Assembly (NCBI RefSeq): GCF_041361465.1
Contig: NZ_JBGKAC010000001.1
Coordinates: 744,001-808,000 of the forward strand
Source of the DNA: Halobaculum sp. MBLA0143
GTDB lineage: Archaea > Halobacteriota > Halobacteria > Halobacteriales > Haloferacaceae
Direction: 5' to 3'
Length of the DNA stretch: 64,000 nt
Shown here: in pieces, positions 2,507-17,024 of the stretch
Layout: every line of letters starts with the position of its first letter
How positions within the stretch are numbered: position 1 is the first letter of the stretch
Made by a program: the position numbers and the translations under genes
Notes under the pieces: generated by a model
Seen by the model: only the letters and a program-made list of their open reading frames with translations
Database searches by the model: none
Told to the model about the DNA's origin: nothing

Positions 2507-3634
2507 ATGCAGGAGTCCAACGACAGCGGTGTCAGTCGACGCGACGTGCTCGAACAGACCGGCGCGGCAGCGACCGCGCTCGCGGGCGTCGGGACCGTCC
2601 CAGCCGTCGCTGCGATAGGAGAACGGGAGACGACGATCACCACCCTCGCACAACGGGACGAAGCGCGCGGCACCGAGCGGGTGAGCAAGCGGTGGCTCCA
2701 ACAGACGAAGCGCGCGACCCGGGTGAAAGAACAGCTGATGAACGCCCACGAGGACAACGATGGTGTCCGGAGTATCGGGATCGTGTCGGCCGACCGGACC
2801 ATCGGTGATCTCCGTGCGGAGGCTGTGAGTGTGGAGGTAACAGACCCGGTTCACGCGCAGTCGATTCCGAGTTCGGTGGACGGGGTGCCTGTCGTTACCA
2901 ATATGGCCGGCCGGTCAGAACAGACCGGCGACGACTGTGCGAGTGACGACTACTGTCGAATCAACCCAGAGAGTATCTATGGTGGGCTGAGTGTGACGAC
3001 GATACATCAAGCGGGGACAATCGGATGCCGAGTGGTGTACAATGGAGCGTACCACATGCTATCTGCGAGACATACTTTTATTGACAAAAACAAAGATGGC
3101 TACTGTGAAGATAGTATCGATGTCTCAACCTGGCAACGCAATGGCACGACACTCGGATCAGCCGCAGCGGACTTCCGAAAACACGACGCAGCCCTCCTCC
3201 GGCTGAACGACGGAAACGAAGATACAGGCTACTCTAACGAGATGGTCAACGAGTCCGGCAAAGTTGTTGGTCGGGTGACTGAGAGCGGACTGAAGTACCT
3301 CAACGGTAACGACAGCGAAACTGTTCATAAACGGGCCCGGACTAGTGGTGCGCAGTCAGGGCAAGTCAAAGCAATTCAACTCACTAATCGCGACTGCCTA
3401 AGTGACCTCCCACTCATTGAGGGAGTCGTTCGATCCTCCACAGCACAACAGGACAAAGACTCCGGGAGTGTAGTGTACTACAGAGAGCCGCAGTCGTCAT
3501 CGACAGATCACCTGTACGTAGTCCACCTTGCAACGATAAGACGGTCTGACACCGGTTGGGCGGCCGGTTCGTCAGCGAACGATATGTACAACGATCAAGG
3601 TATCTGGTTCGGGGGTGAGCCGTATAGTGGATAA
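2507..3634 (+). CDS. Tat-secreted trypsin-like serine protease
   Basis: A 375-residue exported protein. Residues 1-36 form a twin-arginine signal (SRRDVL followed by an Ala/Gly/Val-rich stretch). Residues about 45-140 look like a propeptide region. The C-terminal part has the chymotrypsin-fold triad in the usual order: SARHTF (His189), HDAALLRL (Asp227) and DKDSGSVV (Ser319). Cysteines at 144, 150, 174, 200 and 297 could form disulfides outside the cell. The frame is open further upstream, but the ATG at 2507 begins the Tat signal and fits the promoter. The stop overlaps the start of the next gene by one base (TAATG), implying translational coupling to a membrane protein. The gene is AT-richer than its surroundings. 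The protease fold is inferred from motifs; the substrate is unknown. Confidence 0.75.
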   Translation: MQESNDSGVSRRDVLEQTGAAATALAGVGTVPAVAAIGERETTITTLAQRDEARGTERVSKRWLQQTKRATRVKEQLMNAHEDNDGVRSIGIVSADRTIGDLRAEAVSVEVTDPVHAQSIPSSVDGVPVVTNMAGRSEQTGDDCASDDYCRINPESIYGGLSVTTIHQAGTIGCRVVYNGAYHMLSARHTFIDKNKDGYCEDSIDVSTWQRNGTTLGSAAADFRKHDAALLRLNDGNEDTGYSNEMVNESGKVVGRVTESGLKYLNGNDSETVHKRARTSGAQSGQVKAIQLTNRDCLSDLPLIEGVVRSSTAQQDKDSGSVVYYREPQSSSTDHLYVVHLATIRRSDTGWAAGSSANDMYNDQGIWFGGEPYSG

Positions 3635-4458
3635 TGTCTGATAATTTGAACACACCAGACTGGCGGGCCGTCCCAGGCTTTGTTGTCTCTGCTATTATAA
3701 TCTTAATAGTCTTTATTGGCGCATACAATTCAATCAGTGGAGAAAACAGTGCGGTTGACTATCTACTTGGTGTGTACAGTATGGGAGACCAGTTCTGGAC
3801 ACTGTTCATGATGTCAGTTATGAGTATACTCACTACTTACTCAGTAAAAATTGAACGTCAAATCCCGCGCTACGCATTAGCCACTGCTGGTGGGATACTC
3901 GTCGTCACAGAGCTACGATTCGATATTAACGCATTTACAAAGATTATCATTTTTTTACTTTCAATATTTCTTTTATCATTACTGCTATTTGAAATCTACG
4001 AAAGCAAGAGAGATGAGACGAGCACAGACGTGGTTGAACTGACACCCCAGCGTTTGTTCGAGCTAGTAGCTCTTGTTTCTTGCATACTTCTTTCTGTAGG
4101 TGTAGTTACATCAGCTTTGTCAGTGCTGTTTGGGGCAAGTCCACTCCTCGGTGACCTGGCGGGATCTCGGATTGGAATCGTGTATTTTGTCGGTCCTGAG
4201 GAGGTCCACGATGAGGCGCGGAGTGTGTTCCGTGCTGTAATAGTTTCACTTGTGTTTGTTACTGTCGTTGCTGATGCAGTCCGAAACCGTGAGTTACAGT
4301 GGCTCTCAGTCGTGGCGCTCGTCGTCAGCATCGGTGGAACGAGCTTCTTCTGGTATTACACTTTCTGGACCGCGGCAGTCGCAGCAGCGGGCGCACTGCT
4401 CACCGTAATCGTCGTCGCGCTCGCGCTCGACGAGCGATCGGAAACCCATTCAGAGTGA
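3634..4458 (+). CDS. Eight-helix membrane protein, array copy 1
   Basis: A 274-residue integral membrane protein of no family I recognise. Hydrophobic segments lie near residues 13-31, 54-71, 79-95, 102-121, 144-167, 198-216, 222-241 and 245-265. Features shared with the three paralogues downstream are ELR[FY] at the end of helix 3, a loop with [YF]-x-x-G-x-[ED] followed by EA/ET before helix 6, and a C-terminal FFWYYTFWTA-x-VA-x-x-GALLTVIV block ending in a short acidic tail. It starts inside the stop codon of the protease gene, so the two products are probably made together. AT-rich, unlike the flanking housekeeping genes. Possible roles (inferred only) are inhibitor or immunity partner, sensor or anchor for the secreted protease. 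Confidence 0.85.
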   Translation: MSDNLNTPDWRAVPGFVVSAIIILIVFIGAYNSISGENSAVDYLLGVYSMGDQFWTLFMMSVMSILTTYSVKIERQIPRYALATAGGILVVTELRFDINAFTKIIIFLLSIFLLSLLLFEIYESKRDETSTDVVELTPQRLFELVALVSCILLSVGVVTSALSVLFGASPLLGDLAGSRIGIVYFVGPEEVHDEARSVFRAVIVSLVFVTVVADAVRNRELQWLSVVALVVSIGGTSFFWYYTFWTAAVAAAGALLTVIVVALALDERSETHSE

Positions 4459-4528
4459 CTCTTCCCCGCCTGATTATAAATACACAATTAGAACTAAGTT
4501 ATCCGGTATAACTATATCAGTAAGAACG

Positions 4529-4652
4529 TTACTACTCCCGCACAACAGGACGGAGCGCACCACTCGCTAGCGAGAAGGGCCAGCAGGACCCAATCGGAAT
4601 CATGTACAACGAACACGGCATCTGGTACGGAGGCGAACCATTCAGTGGATGA
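4529..4652 (+). pseudogene. Protease relic before array copy 2
   Basis: Remnant of a second protease gene. The last 17 codons survive in frame and read MYNEHGIWYGGEPFSG then TGA, matching MYNDQGIWFGGEPYSG at the end of the intact protease. The TGA at 4650-4652 overlaps the next ATG (4649-4651), reproducing the coupled junction of copy 1. Bases 4529-4560 resemble the segment coding for TTLAQRDEARG near the protease N-terminus. Everything between has been deleted, including the catalytic domain. Confidence 0.8.
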
Positions 4653-5476
4653 CGGGCGGCTCCCGTTGGTGGTCAGACCGACGAGCTGTCCCCGGCTTAG
4701 CCGTCGCTGTACTCATCGTGATGTTTGCTCTGCTCTCTCTGTTCTCTTTCCCCTCTTTCGGGAGAATGCCTGTGACTTACTTATTAGGCAACCCTTCAAG
4801 AAGCAATGCTTTCTGGATGATACTATTCTTACTGCTATTTGGAATATTTATTTCTTACTCACTAAGTGCTAGACGAAGATTCACCCGGTACACGCTGGCT
4901 GCCACAGGGACTGTTCTCACAGCCGCAGAACTTCGATACTTCGACGACGCGAGTGTCCAGATACTCGCTGTTCTAGTTTCTCTCTACCTCGTCTCTGTGC
5001 TCTCTTTCGAGGTCTTCGACGGCGAGGTGAGCCCAAGCGAGGAGCCCCTCGGACTTCCGCCGAGTAGTTTGTTCGAAGCTCTAGCAATTGTCGCTTGTGT
5101 CCTTCTCTTCGCGGGAGTCGCAGGGTCACTCCTGTCCGTGTTGTTGCTCGGAGAGAGCCCACTGCTCGGAAAGTTGGCGGGATCACCAGTCGCTGTCGTG
5201 TACCTCACTGGCTCTGACGCAGCCGCCTACGAAGCCCGAGTGCCGGTCCAGGCTGCTACTGTAGCGGTAATGTTCGTCGCCGTCGTCGCCGACGCGGTCA
5301 GACACTGCGAAGTGCGGTGGCTAACAGCTATTACTCTCGCCGTCGACATCGCTGGGATGATGTTCTTTTGGTACTATACATTTTGGACCGCGACCGTCGC
5401 AGCAGTGGGCGCACTGCTCACCGTGATCGTGCTTGCGCTCGTGCTCGACGAACGAACCGAGGCGACTCTGGACTGA
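4649..5476 (+). CDS. Eight-helix membrane protein, array copy 2
   Basis: A 275-residue paralogue of copy 1 with the same helix pattern and motifs: RRAVPG before helix 1, AELRY at helix 3, LLGKLAGSPVAVVYLTG in the loop after helix 5, and MMFFWYYTFWTATVA at the end. The ATG overlaps the stop of the protease relic just upstream. Helices 1-3 retain AT-rich codons, while the second half is closer to host composition, suggesting partial amelioration. No function is known. The intact frame beside a dead protease gene argues that the membrane protein is what selection keeps. Confidence 0.85.
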   Translation: MTGGSRWWSDRRAVPGLAVAVLIVMFALLSLFSFPSFGRMPVTYLLGNPSRSNAFWMILFLLLFGIFISYSLSARRRFTRYTLAATGTVLTAAELRYFDDASVQILAVLVSLYLVSVLSFEVFDGEVSPSEEPLGLPPSSLFEALAIVACVLLFAGVAGSLLSVLLLGESPLLGKLAGSPVAVVYLTGSDAAAYEARVPVQAATVAVMFVAVVADAVRHCEVRWLTAITLAVDIAGMMFFWYYTFWTATVAAVGALLTVIVLALVLDERTEATLD

Positions 5477-5523
5477 GTTTACTCTGTGCGGTTGCTAATG
5501 TGCAACAAATCTAAGTTGGCCGG

Positions 5524-5588
5524 CACAGACAGGTCTGCACAACCCGGGTGAAAACCAGGTGATGGACGCTCACGGGAACAGTGAGGGT
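5524..5588 (+). pseudogene. Protease relic before array copy 3
   Basis: About 65 bases resembling the protease segment at 2698-2771 that codes for TRVKEQLMNAHEDNDGV: both carry ACCCGGGTGAAA, then CAG-TGATG-ACGC-CACG in the same order. The copy is frameshifted and stops early. It abuts and slightly overlaps the start of copy 3. Here the surviving part is N-terminal, unlike the relics before copies 2 and 4. Confidence 0.65.
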
Positions 5589-6414
5589 GAATAACAACCT
5601 CGGCTGGAGATCACTTCCTGCAATCCTTGTAGCAACGGTTCCGATCTACTACTCCGTCTACACGTTGTCAAAACCCGTGAGAACAGTCACAAAGTTCTGG
5701 TATTTTTTTGAACCTGAGTCCCTGCCGGAGCATTTCTGGTCTCCTCTATTTCTACTCTTTTCAGGAGTTGCAGTTATATTCACTCAACAGGTCAGACATA
5801 GTCTCTCTCGACGCACGTTGGCCGTATCTGGTAGTGTAATTATTTCCGCTGAACTGCGGTATGCTCTTAGTGCAAGCGAACAAGCAACGTTTTTCACTTT
5901 ATTTGCCTTATTTATACCACTGTTTTTATCTACGGTTCTATACGAAGTCTCCAACAGTAGAGGTGTAGATACCGGTGGAGATCGACTTCACTTTCGTGGC
6001 AACACGACGCTTGGCCGAGTTGCGGTAGCTGCGTGTGTGCTCCTCGTCGGTGTGACTGTGTGCATTGCCATTTTAGTGCTCATAATTGAAACGCCCACAC
6101 TTTCGCCAGGGACAAGCGCATCTACCCCAGGGATTGCGTTTCTCGTTGGTGGACAGGAGGCGCAGGCTGAAACACGGATACAGTTCTGGGCCGTTGCTGT
6201 AGCCGTAGTATTCGTTGTCGTCGTCATTGACGCCACGCGATACCGCGAGATTCGGTGGCTCACGGTACTCGCACTCGTCGTCAACACGGGTGCCGTGACC
6301 TTCCTCTGGTACCCGAGCCTCTGGACCGCGACAGTCGCCACGGTCGGCGCGTTACTCACCGTGATCGTCGTCGCGCTCGTACTCGACGGGCGATCCGAAA
6401 CTACTCTGGATTGA
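5581..6414 (+). CDS. Eight-helix membrane protein, array copy 3
   Basis: A 277-residue paralogue of copies 1 and 2, with GWRSLPA before helix 1, AELRYAL at helix 3, GIAFLVGGQEAQAETR before helix 6 and a C-terminal WTATVATVGALLTVIVVALV block. The FFWYYTFW motif of copies 1 and 2 is changed to FLWYPSLW. The GTG at 5581 aligns best with the other copies; a second GTG at 5587 is also possible. It follows a short N-terminal relic of the protease gene. Helices 2-4 are markedly AT-rich. Function unknown. Confidence 0.83.
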   Translation: MRVNNNLGWRSLPAILVATVPIYYSVYTLSKPVRTVTKFWYFFEPESLPEHFWSPLFLLFSGVAVIFTQQVRHSLSRRTLAVSGSVIISAELRYALSASEQATFFTLFALFIPLFLSTVLYEVSNSRGVDTGGDRLHFRGNTTLGRVAVAACVLLVGVTVCIAILVLIIETPTLSPGTSASTPGIAFLVGGQEAQAETRIQFWAVAVAVVFVVVVIDATRYREIRWLTVLALVVNTGAVTFLWYPSLWTATVATVGALLTVIVVALVLDGRSETTLD

Positions 6415-6487
6415 GTTCCACACCACCTGGATATAAGTACGTAGCCAAGATCAATCACGCTCTACACAGCTAGACCACGGGGGCGGC

Positions 6488-6617
6488 TCCACTCTCGCAA
6501 CGCGAGACGAACTCCGGCACTCGTCGGCGGGGACGGCCAGCAGGACGCAATCGGCACCTCCGGAACAACACGTACGAAGATCAGGTGATCTCGTTTGATC
6601 AAAAGCAGTACAGCGGC
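6488..6617 (+). pseudogene. Protease relic before array copy 4
   Basis: Two fragments of the protease gene. Bases 6488-6520 can be read as STLATRDELRH, resembling TTLAQRDEARG. Bases 6564-6617 read NNTYEDQVISFDQKQYSG, which aligns without gaps to the protease ending NDMYNDQGIWFGGEPYSG with nine identities. The frames are no longer continuous and the stop has moved downstream (TAG at 6630-6632). The fragment junction GGCCAGCAGGAC-CAATCGG is shared with the relic before copy 2. Confidence 0.65.
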
Positions 6618-6624
6618 CGACAAG

Positions 6625-7455
6625 GTGGCTAGTGTCCGAAAGTACAGTCGACTACCGGCCATCGTCGTCGGCGGGGGTCTGATCGCTATCGCTCTCGTGA
6701 GCTGGTTTACACCCCTCAGATACCTCGGAGCGGGCACGTTCGCAACTGTCGAGTACCTTCTCGGAGTCAATGAGGCGGAGCCGTACTACTACCAATCGCT
6801 GGGGTACTTCCTGACCGGTGCCTCTGTGTGCTACGCTAGCTATCGAACTCGGACACTCCTACTCGGTGTACTGTCGGGAACAGGTGTCGTCTTCCTGCTC
6901 GGTGAACTACGATTCGGGGTTCAGTTGCTCTCCCTCGCAGGGCTCGGTGCTGTTCTAACGGGGACGGTGGGGCTGTTAGCACTCCTGTCTCGTTCCGACG
7001 GGCACAGTTCATCTCTCCCGAGCAGACTGGCTCGGCTCATCGATACTGATGTCCGTGAACCTGAACGCCTCGCCGGCTATTCGGCGTGTGTGGTGGTGTG
7101 CGTGGTCCTCGGTGCGTATACTGCCGTCGGAGACCCGTTCGCAGGTACAGCAGAGCCAGTACCGGCATTCCTCTATCTCACCGGCAAAGAGAGTGTCTAC
7201 GCTGAAGCCCAGGGCTCGTTTCGGACGGCAATCGCTCTCGGGTCGTTCGCGGCCTTCGTGGCGGACACGACGCGGCAGGGCGCAACTCGGTGGCTGGCGC
7301 TAACGGCAGTTGTGCTCAACCTCTCTGCTATCAGTGTCCTGTGGTTCTGGAACGCTCGGGGTCTCGCAGCTGCAATCGTCGGGGTGCTCGTCACCGTCGC
7401 CGCGGTCGGCGCAGCAACTAGAGGAGAGACGGAGCGCGAAGCTGCATCCCCCTGA
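6625..7455 (+). CDS. Eight-helix membrane protein, array copy 4
   Basis: The most divergent paralogue, 276 residues from the GTG at 6625; a TTG at 6595 would add ten residues that belong to the relic reading. Family marks are RLPAIVVGG before helix 1, GELRFGV at helix 3, PAFLYLTGKESVYAEAQGSFRT before helix 6 and a final pair of helices, but the FFWYYTFW motif is replaced by VLWFWNARG. Base composition is close to that of the host, so this may be the oldest copy. Function unknown. Confidence 0.82.
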   Translation: MASVRKYSRLPAIVVGGGLIAIALVSWFTPLRYLGAGTFATVEYLLGVNEAEPYYYQSLGYFLTGASVCYASYRTRTLLLGVLSGTGVVFLLGELRFGVQLLSLAGLGAVLTGTVGLLALLSRSDGHSSSLPSRLARLIDTDVREPERLAGYSACVVVCVVLGAYTAVGDPFAGTAEPVPAFLYLTGKESVYAEAQGSFRTAIALGSFAAFVADTTRQGATRWLALTAVVLNLSAISVLWFWNARGLAAAIVGVLVTVAAVGAATRGETEREAASP

Positions 7456-16297: not shown

Positions 16298-16525
16298 TTG
16301 ACCTCTCCGTGTCGCCGGAGTCGAAGCGACTGTGCCACCCCCTCGCGGGCGGGCACAGACGGGCCGGACTGACGACGACAGGGTTGAGGAGCCGCCGACA
16401 GCAGGTCAGACCACTACGAGAGGAGCACCAGAGGACCCGAGAGCAGGGTGAGAGAAAGTCACAGGCAGACGCGCACGCGGAGAGAGACGTGTCCCGAGGC
16501 ACTCTCGAAAACCCGGCCGTGCGGA

Positions 16526-16905
16526 GGTGGAGCGATGTGGAGTGGAGCAGAGACGGAGACAAAGTGGAGACGAACGGGAAGCAGAGCGGAGACGCAGGGG
16601 AGCAGAGATGGGAGCGGAGGCGAAGCGATGCGGAGAAGAGCAGAGGTGGAGGCAGAGACAGAGCGGAGACGCAGGGGAGCAGAGATGGGGGCGGAGGCGA
16701 AGCGATGCAGAAAAGAGCAGAGGTGGAGGCAGAGACAGAGCGATGCAGAAAAGAGCAGAGGTGGAGGCAGAGACAGAGCGATGCAGAAAAGAGCAGAGGT
16801 GGAGGTGGAGGCGGAGGCGAAGCGGTGCGGAGACGGAGCAATGTGGAGGAGAGCAGAAGCGGAGCGGGGGCGGAGGGGAGACGGAGTGGTGCGGAGGCGG
16901 AGCGG
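16526..16905. repeat. Purine-rich tandem repeats, 38- and 77-base periods
   Basis: The plus strand is almost all A and G. The unit GATGCAGAAAAGAGCAGAGG, extended to 38 bases, recurs at 16704, 16742 and 16780. A 77-base unit starting GCGGAGACGCAGGGGAGCAG recurs at 16586 and 16663, and degenerate copies continue on both sides. All six frames are open or nearly so, but the predicted peptides are low-complexity (Arg/Glu/Gly or Leu/Ser/Pro) and no start or domain is seen, so I treat it as noncoding. It lies between the aglB promoter and the terminator of the deacylase gene; the flanking bases 16298-16525 and 16906-16964 hold no gene. Confidence 0.8.
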
Positions 16906-16964
16906 CCGCGGTTGGCACTATCCCACAGTACGCGAGCGAGCGAAGCGAGCGAGCGCTTTTTAAT

Positions 16965-17024
16965 CGACATTTTTTCCTTGGCTGGGCGCGCGCAGCGCGC
17001 CCAGCTAAGGAGTGAAAAATGTCG
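16965..17024 (-). terminator. Long inverted repeat behind the deacylase gene
   Basis: An imperfect inverted repeat with arms of about 29 bases (CGACATTTTTTCCTTGGCTG against CAGCTAAGGAGTGAAAAATG plus flanks) and a GC-rich centre GCGCGCGCAGCGCGC. It begins two bases after the stop of the deacylase gene and ends in a T/A-rich arm, so it can act as a terminator on either strand. Next to it, 16931-16955 is a smaller palindrome built of GAGCGAAGCGAGC-type units followed by TTTTTAAT. Confidence 0.7.

What the first reader, a model, noticed from the sequence alone, without database searches (positions are those of the whole stretch)
2507..7455. Tandem array of four eight-helix membrane proteins headed by a secreted protease
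One intact Tat-exported trypsin-like protease gene (triad His189, Asp227, Ser319) is joined by a TAATG overlap to an eight-helix membrane protein. Three more copies of the membrane gene follow in tandem, each preceded by a degraded piece of the protease gene. The membrane frames are intact and diverged; the protease copies are dead. This asymmetry is what one sees in toxin-immunity arrays, where orphan immunity genes are kept and the toxin is lost. A secreted lytic or maturation protease with a membrane inhibitor, a halocin-like contest system, or a protease-sensor pair are the main hypotheses. The island is AT-rich and looks transferred. I know of no description of such an array.
Basis: partly seen in the sequence, partly recalled or inferred. 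Interest (0 to 1): 0.92.

Follow-up and report, generated by a model that had tools for sequence, protein, structure and literature searches.

The report
Secreted archaeal protease with membrane-guard array
A salt-loving archaeon carries a gene for an exported trypsin-like protease followed by four related membrane-protein genes, three of them sitting behind remnants of lost protease genes, a pattern that recurs elsewhere and most resembles an undescribed toxin-and-immunity system in archaea, though no function has been tested.

Summary
Window 2507-3634 encodes an intact Tat-exported chymotrypsin-fold protease (His189/Asp227/Ser319 conserved; predicted fold closest to plant NAL1, then alpha-lytic protease). 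Four eight-helix membrane proteins of one family follow. All three extra copies sit behind statistically secure protease remnants. The pattern is not unique. Six closely related proteases exist in three of four genomes of the genus, and each is followed by a membrane gene of this family; six of twelve full-length membrane copies lack a protease, one in another genome behind a 47-codon protease relic. The membrane family was found nowhere else in 391 Halobacteria except weak half-length matches. Orphan frames stayed open where neutral drift would have broken them, membrane proteins change faster than their proteases, and neighbouring copies share a recombination-homogenised 3' block, as in T7SS immunity strings. 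A second protease locus in this genome has the same architecture with an unrelated 2-TM family; at the same site a sister genome keeps two 2-TM genes and no protease. Best explanation (about 0.5): secreted protease effector plus membrane immunity, with orphan immunity genes retained. Killing, inhibition and binding are untested; a protease-cofactor or sensor pair is the main rival.

The parts
2507..3634 (+). Intact Tat-exported NAL1-like/chymotrypsin-fold serine protease (375 aa): Tat signal, N-terminal domain about 40-135, catalytic domain about 155-372, triad H189/D227/S319
   Evidence: invariant RR, H, DSG; pLDDT 82, pTM 0.83; NAL1 Z 23.2 over 291 aa; SGPB Z 18.7, alpha-lytic protease Z 18.6
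3634..4458 (+). M1, eight-TM membrane protein, 274 aa, overlapping the protease stop (TAATG); cognate partner of the intact protease
4596..4649 (+). Protease relic 1: C-terminal 18 codons (GIMYNEHGIWYGGEPFSG, 12 of the last 16 residues identical) ending at the M2 start
   Evidence: z 12.4; score 78, 0/2000 shuffles
4561..4597 (+). 37-bp stretch shared with 6518-6554 (same relative place before M2 and M4); origin unclear, may belong to the relics
   Evidence: relic-vs-relic; repeat D5
4649..5476 (+). M2, orphan eight-TM membrane protein, 275 aa
   Evidence: neutral-decay simulation
5542..5589 (+). Protease relic 2: N-terminal piece (codons about 69-86, one 1-nt gap) running into the M3 start
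   Evidence: z 14.5
5581..6414 (+). M3, orphan eight-TM membrane protein, 277 aa (GTG start; exact start uncertain)
6564..6617 (+). Protease relic 3: C-terminal 18 codons (NNTYEDQVISFDQKQYSG) at the M4 start
   Evidence: score 42; 0/2000 shuffles; 0/279 control windows; DNA alone not significant
6595..7455 (+). M4, most diverged orphan membrane protein, 286 aa from TTG 6595 (start uncertain)
4300..4455 (+). 3' homology block of M1 (last 52 codons; counterparts about 5318-5473 in M2 and 6256-6411 in M3), homogenised also at fourfold-degenerate sites
   Evidence: p = 0.0005, 0.003, 0.0025

Best explanation
A polymorphic effector-immunity module. SHOWN: an intact exported serine protease gene is immediately followed by a polytopic membrane protein gene; the pair recurs; extra membrane copies without a protease are retained, in two genomes behind protease relics; the copies have a homogenised 3' block. 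INFERRED: the protease is exported folded through Tat and acts outside the cell on surface proteins of related cells (for instance the S-layer), or on a secreted precursor. The membrane protein protects the producer, probably by capturing or blocking its cognate protease at the outer face of its own membrane. Orphan copies are kept because they protect against proteases of other strains. New pairs arrive by transfer or duplication and recombine through the membrane gene's 3' block and the protease gene, leaving displaced membrane genes with protease stubs.
For: (1) 6 of 6 close proteases (E 1e-105 to 1e-118 against the family profile) are directly followed by a family member, gap -1 to 15 nt. 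(2) 6 of 12 full-length membrane copies are orphans, all in loci that also hold an intact pair; relics before M2, M3, M4 and M_57a. (3) Orphan frames are intact at 25-54% identity; neutral drift of 0.3 substitutions per site leaves under 3% stop-free. Orphan M_36b against M_55 of another genome: dN 0.42, dS 1.18. (4) Membrane genes change faster than their partners: P_35/P_37 dN 0.143 at dS 0.77, cognate M_35/M_37a dN 0.298 at dS 0.89; P_36/P_57 61% identity, their membrane partners 21%. (5) Adjacent copies share a 3' block at fourfold sites (five pairs, p 0.0005-0.005), pairs from different loci do not (p 0.26, 0.99); T7SS tipC immunity strings have such end blocks and recombine there (PMC9484751). 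(6) Orphan M_36b is closest to M_55, the partner of a protease in a sister genome (54%). (7) Independent replicate: locus C1:276-287 kb, another NAL1-like protease between two tandem pairs of an unrelated 2-TM family; the same site in G391 has two 2-TM genes and no protease.
Against: No activity, inhibition, binding or expression data. Orphans M_36b and M_37b, and the upstream 2-TM pair, have no detectable protease relic, so they may be plain duplications. Most distant NAL1-like proteases have no adjacent multi-TM gene (49 of 59). The membrane fold matches nothing clearly, so an inhibitory role has no structural precedent. The pairing rests on three genomes of one genus. dS is near saturation for several pairs.
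Confidence: 0.5

Rival explanations
1. Protease with its own membrane cofactor or anchor: the membrane protein is needed to fold, hold or activate the protease at the cell surface (housekeeping or nutritional proteolysis); extra membrane copies are duplicates with partner specificity for proteases elsewhere in the genome (four close proteases, nine membrane copies).
For: Immediate downstream gene with conserved short spacing in all six pairs; four close proteases scattered in one genome could use extra copies.
Against: Does not explain repeated loss of the protease with retention of the membrane gene, the faster evolution of the membrane gene, or replacement by an unrelated 2-TM family in the same role. 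Most members of the protease superfamily do without such a partner.
Confidence: 0.2
2. Protease-sensor pair: the protease cleaves the external loops of the membrane protein (or a third protein) and the membrane protein signals or gates transport; paralogues are a sensor family.
For: The charge pattern of M1 suggests N-in/C-in topology with two larger external loops carrying the YLLG and YFVG motifs (sequence and helices; inference); diversity of the loops.
Against: No signalling domain, no conserved intracellular motif or adjacent regulator; sensors without their protease would be useless unless other proteases serve them.
Confidence: 0.13
3. No conflict function: tandem duplication of a two-gene operon with protease decay, membrane copies drifting under weak constraint.
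For: Arrays lie in AT-rich, variable sites; some orphans lack relics; membrane dN/dS is higher than that of the protease.
Against: Six orphan frames intact where neutral drift would introduce stops; dN/dS well below 1; the pattern repeats in two genomes and with a second membrane family.
Confidence: 0.12
4. Protease-precursor antagonism: the protease itself is harmless and activates an antimicrobial precursor (as halolysin HlyR4 does with HFX_0892); the membrane protein gives immunity to the released peptide.
For: Precedent in haloarchaea: an extracellular serine protease releases an antimicrobial peptide from a secreted precursor (PMC12893001).
Against: No candidate precursor is encoded in the unit; the published protease is a halolysin and no relation to this family was shown. 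It would not explain why each membrane gene pairs with its own protease.
Confidence: 0.05

Closest known systems
T7SS immunity-gene strings (esaG, tsaI in Staphylococcus; tipC in Streptococcus), PMC9484751
   Same: One toxin gene followed by a string of non-identical immunity paralogues; TipC is membrane-bound and faces outward; homology blocks at gene ends with a variable centre; recombination between tandem copies. Here: 3' block and variable remainder.
   Different: Bacterial, delivered by T7SS, no protease toxin; here archaeal, Tat-exported, no delivery machine seen. No sequence relation was tested or found.
Polymorphic toxin systems (PMC3482391)
   Same: Effector next to cognate immunity, orphan immunity genes, displacement by recombination.
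   Different: No multidomain delivery architecture here; no known immunity family is matched; classical systems are rare in archaea.
NAL1 (NARROW LEAF 1) plant serine protease; alpha-lytic protease / SGPB (bacterial S1)
   Same: Predicted fold: NAL1 Z 23.2 over 291 aa including part of the N-terminal region; SGPB Z 18.7 over 178 aa.
   Different: About 16-20% identity; exported by Tat; no Pfam or NCBIfam assignment for the window protein; distant members score weakly to Trypsin_2, below its cut-off.
HlyR4 / HFX_0892 synergistic antagonism in Haloferax mediterranei (PMC12893001)
   Same: Haloarchaeal antagonism that depends on a secreted serine protease.
   Different: A halolysin acting on a precursor from another strain; no immunity array.
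VARTIG modules of Thermococcales (PMC8416519)
   Same: Archaeal hypervariable module proposed to act like a polymorphic toxin system.
   Different: Ig-domain proteins, no protease, no polytopic membrane array.

Membership tests
Chymotrypsin-fold (PA clan, S1-like) serine peptidase | His-Asp-Ser triad with GDSGG-like motif | tested here: met
   H189, D318-S319-G320 invariant, D227 at least 90%, in 26 homologues; in the window protein the motif reads KDSGS
Chymotrypsin-fold (PA clan, S1-like) serine peptidase | Double beta-barrel fold | tested here: met
   Model pLDDT 82; SGPB Z 18.7 over 178 aa, alpha-lytic protease Z 18.6 over 183 aa
Chymotrypsin-fold (PA clan, S1-like) serine peptidase | Proteolytic activity | not testable with these tools
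   needs enzyme assay
NAL1 family | Same domain organisation as NAL1 (region before and within the protease core) | tested here: inconclusive
   NAL1 is the top structural match, residues 60-375 aligned (Z 23.2), but only about 17% identity and no sequence-level family match
Toxin-immunity (polymorphic toxin-like) module | Effector and immunity genes adjacent in a fixed order | tested here: met
   6 of 6 close pairs, gap -1 to 15 nt
Toxin-immunity (polymorphic toxin-like) module | Orphan putative-immunity genes retained where the effector is broken or absent | tested here: met
   relics at M2, M3, M4 and in L057; orphan frames intact
Toxin-immunity (polymorphic toxin-like) module | Effector is toxic and the partner neutralises it specifically | not testable with these tools
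   needs expression and co-culture tests
Classical polymorphic toxin system | Conserved N-terminal trafficking part with exchangeable C-terminal toxin domain | tested here: not met
   The proteases are homologous along their whole length; identity varies along the gene but there is no domain exchange
Tandem immunity strings of T7SS type | Homology block at gene ends with recombination between tandem copies | tested here: met
   3' block at fourfold sites in five adjacent pairs, p 0.0005-0.005, absent in cross-locus pairs; no breakpoint analysis was done
Tandem immunity strings of T7SS type | Linked T7SS and homologous toxin/immunity proteins | not tested
   not searched for specifically; no Pfam, NCBIfam or PADLOC match for the members
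Known anti-phage defence system | Match to a PADLOC family | tested here: not met
   no match for any of the five proteins at E up to 1

The most novel reading that the evidence does not exclude
Haloarchaea use exported NAL1-like proteases as weapons against relatives, each guarded by an interchangeable, rapidly evolving family of membrane immunity proteins (8-TM here, 2-TM at a second locus), with orphan immunity arrays built by cassette displacement: an archaeal interference system with no described counterpart.
Probability: 0.4. Interest if true: 0.85.

Novelty: new variant of a known kind. Interest (0 to 1): 0.62.

Why it matters
Archaeal antagonism is known from few molecular systems, and classical immunity families are largely absent from archaea (PMC3482391). 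If confirmed, this would give a genetically simple protease-immunity pair, with natural orphan immunity genes as built-in specificity tests. It would also supply functions for two unassigned membrane families and for a protease superfamily found in 161 of 391 Halobacteria genomes but labelled 'hypothetical protein' in all six plasmid records matched.

Tried and rejected
Pfam, NCBIfam, PHROGs and PADLOC: nothing significant for either protein; PDB sequence search of the protease: nothing. Membrane model against the PDB: only middling helical-bundle matches (best Z 9.4 to part of SUR1), which I do not interpret. Internal duplication of the membrane protein: only a weak signal (hhalign P 0.0026 and 0.046), left open. 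Viral origin: no protease relative in viral contigs or phages (queried with P_37). Plasmids: only 24-28% protease relatives, no membrane relative. A lipoprotein as the general partner of distant proteases: several have a Tat lipoprotein neighbour but these lipoproteins are common and the adjacency was not tested against a control. Empty site for the window island: not recoverable, because the flanking genes are not adjacent in G173. Scan of viral contigs with the membrane alignment was not possible.
Full report
WHERE IT IS. The window is part of a haloarchaeal genome of 3.58 Mb in two contigs (G000:C1:744001-808000). The array lies at 2507-7455, between a 2-oxoacid:ferredoxin oxidoreductase-like gene (minus strand; DNA homology to sister genomes on that side ends at window 2376) and a PKD-like/threonine-synthase block (names of flanking genes from general knowledge of the sequences, not from a family search). 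GC falls to 43-59% against about 61-70% upstream and 66-72% downstream. In the congener G173 the two flanks are about 260 kb apart, so no empty site can be reconstructed.

THE PROTEASE. 375 aa with a twin-arginine signal. No database family is matched, but its AlphaFold2 model is good (pLDDT 82, pTM 0.83). It matches plant NAL1 over residues 60-375 (Z 23.2, 291 aligned, 3.9 A) and the bacterial S1 proteases SGPB and alpha-lytic protease over the catalytic domain (Z about 18.7). In 26 homologues the Tat arginines, His189 and Asp318-Ser319-Gly320 are invariant and Asp227 nearly so. The superfamily is common: 161 of 391 Halobacteria genomes, 58 of 86 genera.

THE MEMBRANE FAMILY. M1-M4 are homologous. 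M1 is modelled with eight long helices (pLDDT 74); no known fold stands out. A profile search finds nine copies in this genome, two full-length and one partial in G345 (an uncultured Halobacteria MAG), one in G391, none in G173. In 391 Halobacteria and in 170 genomes of the family nothing else is found but weak half-length matches, several of them to a 145-aa 4-TM protein type.

PAIRING. Six proteases form a tight subfamily in this genus. All six are followed immediately by a membrane-family gene: the window; own genome C1:2716067-2717230, C2:115368-116519, C1:1626928-1628085; G345:C354; G391:C248. Twelve full-length membrane genes exist; six are paired and six are orphans (M2, M3, M4; M_36b; M_37b; M_57a). 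All orphans lie in loci that also hold an intact pair. Names such as P_36 or M_36b refer to loci L035, L036, L037, L055 and L057.

RELICS. Remnants of the protease gene precede M2 (C-terminal, 49 bp, z 12), M3 (N-terminal, 49 columns, z 14.5) and, in G345, M_57a (about 110 bp, 47 codons, z 16). The relic before M4 is not significant as DNA but is as protein: the terminal 18 residues align without gaps right at the M4 start, 0 of 2000 shuffles and 0 of 279 control windows reaching the score. No relic was found before M_36b or M_37b. In relic 1 about half of the base differences are silent and the amino-acid changes are conservative (D/E, Q/H, F/Y, Y/F), as if that copy diverged as a working protease before it was deleted (reading of the alignment).

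SELECTION AND RECOMBINATION. Orphan reading frames survive at divergences where simulated neutral drift would break nearly all of them (substitutions only, no indels). The two most similar pairs show dN 0.143 (protease) and 0.298 (membrane) at similar dS of 0.77-0.89, so the membrane partner changes faster but is constrained. For P_36/P_57 the proteases are 61% identical and their partners 21%. In five comparisons of adjacent copies (M1/M2, M1/M3, M2/M3, M_36a/M_36b, M_57a/M_57b) the last 52 codons are more alike even at fourfold-degenerate sites (p 0.0005 to 0.005). Cross-locus pairs (p 0.26, 0.99), a copy 2.7 kb away (p 0.23) and M1/M4 (p 0.37) do not show this. That points to recombination or gene conversion through the 3' end within arrays. 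Orphan M_36b is closest to M_55, the partner of a protease in another genome (54%).

AN INDEPENDENT REPLICATE. Elsewhere in this genome (C1:276000-287000, L108) another member of the protease superfamily is followed, without a gap, by two overlapping genes for about 100-aa 2-TM proteins, and preceded by a second such pair without a protease (A_up 3657-3971, B_up 3968-4267; A 5796-6101, B 6098-6391; A/A_up 56%, B/B_up 72% identity). At the syntenic site in G391 (both flanks aligned, 79-90% identity at the outer ends) there are two 2-TM genes and no protease or relic. In G396 a relative of this 2-TM family follows a NAL1-like protease. Whether the protease was lost in G391 or gained here is not known. 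Across the wider superfamily a multi-TM gene directly downstream is modestly enriched: 10 of 59 proteases outside the six pairs against 30 of 394 control genes (p 0.023), 16 of 65 overall (p 1.5e-4). The downstream proteins differ between loci.

MECHANISM. I favour an exported protease effector guarded by a membrane immunity protein, with orphan immunity genes retained (0.5). Shown: adjacency, relics, retention of orphans, faster evolution of the membrane partner, 3' homogenisation, and repetition with a second membrane family. Inferred: that the protease harms other cells, that the membrane protein blocks it, that orphans protect against foreign proteases, and that recombination displaces old immunity genes. 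A protease with a membrane cofactor or anchor (0.2), a sensor pair (0.13) and neutral duplication with decay (0.12) explain less of this, chiefly the repeated loss of only the protease.

COMPARISON. The closest analogue is the T7SS immunity strings (esaG, tsaI, tipC), where paralogues recombine through conserved blocks at the gene ends and TipC is membrane-bound and outward-facing (PMC9484751). This is a likeness of architecture and evolution, not of sequence. Membership in classical polymorphic toxin systems fails on domain exchange. A haloarchaeal antagonism that depends on a secreted serine protease has been reported (PMC12893001), but with a halolysin and a separate precursor. Five of the eight literature searches looked for an archaeal protease-immunity system; none returned a description of such an array. 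Only open-licence papers are held.

Noticed in passing
L108 (own genome C1:276000-287000): Second locus with the same logic: NAL1-like protease between two tandem pairs of 2-TM genes; syntenic G391 site has the 2-TM genes but no protease.
   Followed up: yes
L109 5040-5690 (own genome C1:1069911-1070213 region): Further degraded NAL1-like protease gene with a broken N-terminus and no multi-TM neighbour seen.
   Followed up: no
L017 2765-3379, L018 2630-3328, L020 2739-3320, L021 2615-3340, L022 2545-3216: Several distant NAL1-like proteases have an adjacent Tat lipoprotein gene; these fall into at least two homologous groups and might be another kind of surface partner. Adjacency not tested against a control.
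   Followed up: partly
L007, L008, L009, L010: Nearly the same protease occurs in genomes of three genera and two families, one of them on a plasmid record of Halobacterium sp. DL1 and another match on halophilic archaeon DL31, suggesting recent transfer.
   Followed up: no
L042 1504-1941, L043 1453-1890, L044 about 1597-1863: Small 4-TM haloarchaeal proteins with an IDYLLG motif match about half of the eight-TM family; the latter may be an internal duplication of such a protein.
   Followed up: partly
window 16501-17000: Strong local GC skew (0.44) and AT skew (0.52) in one 500-bp stretch, out of line with its surroundings.
   Followed up: no
L056 6-914 (G345:C90): Partial further member of the eight-TM family at a contig start; its upstream context is missing.
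   Followed up: no
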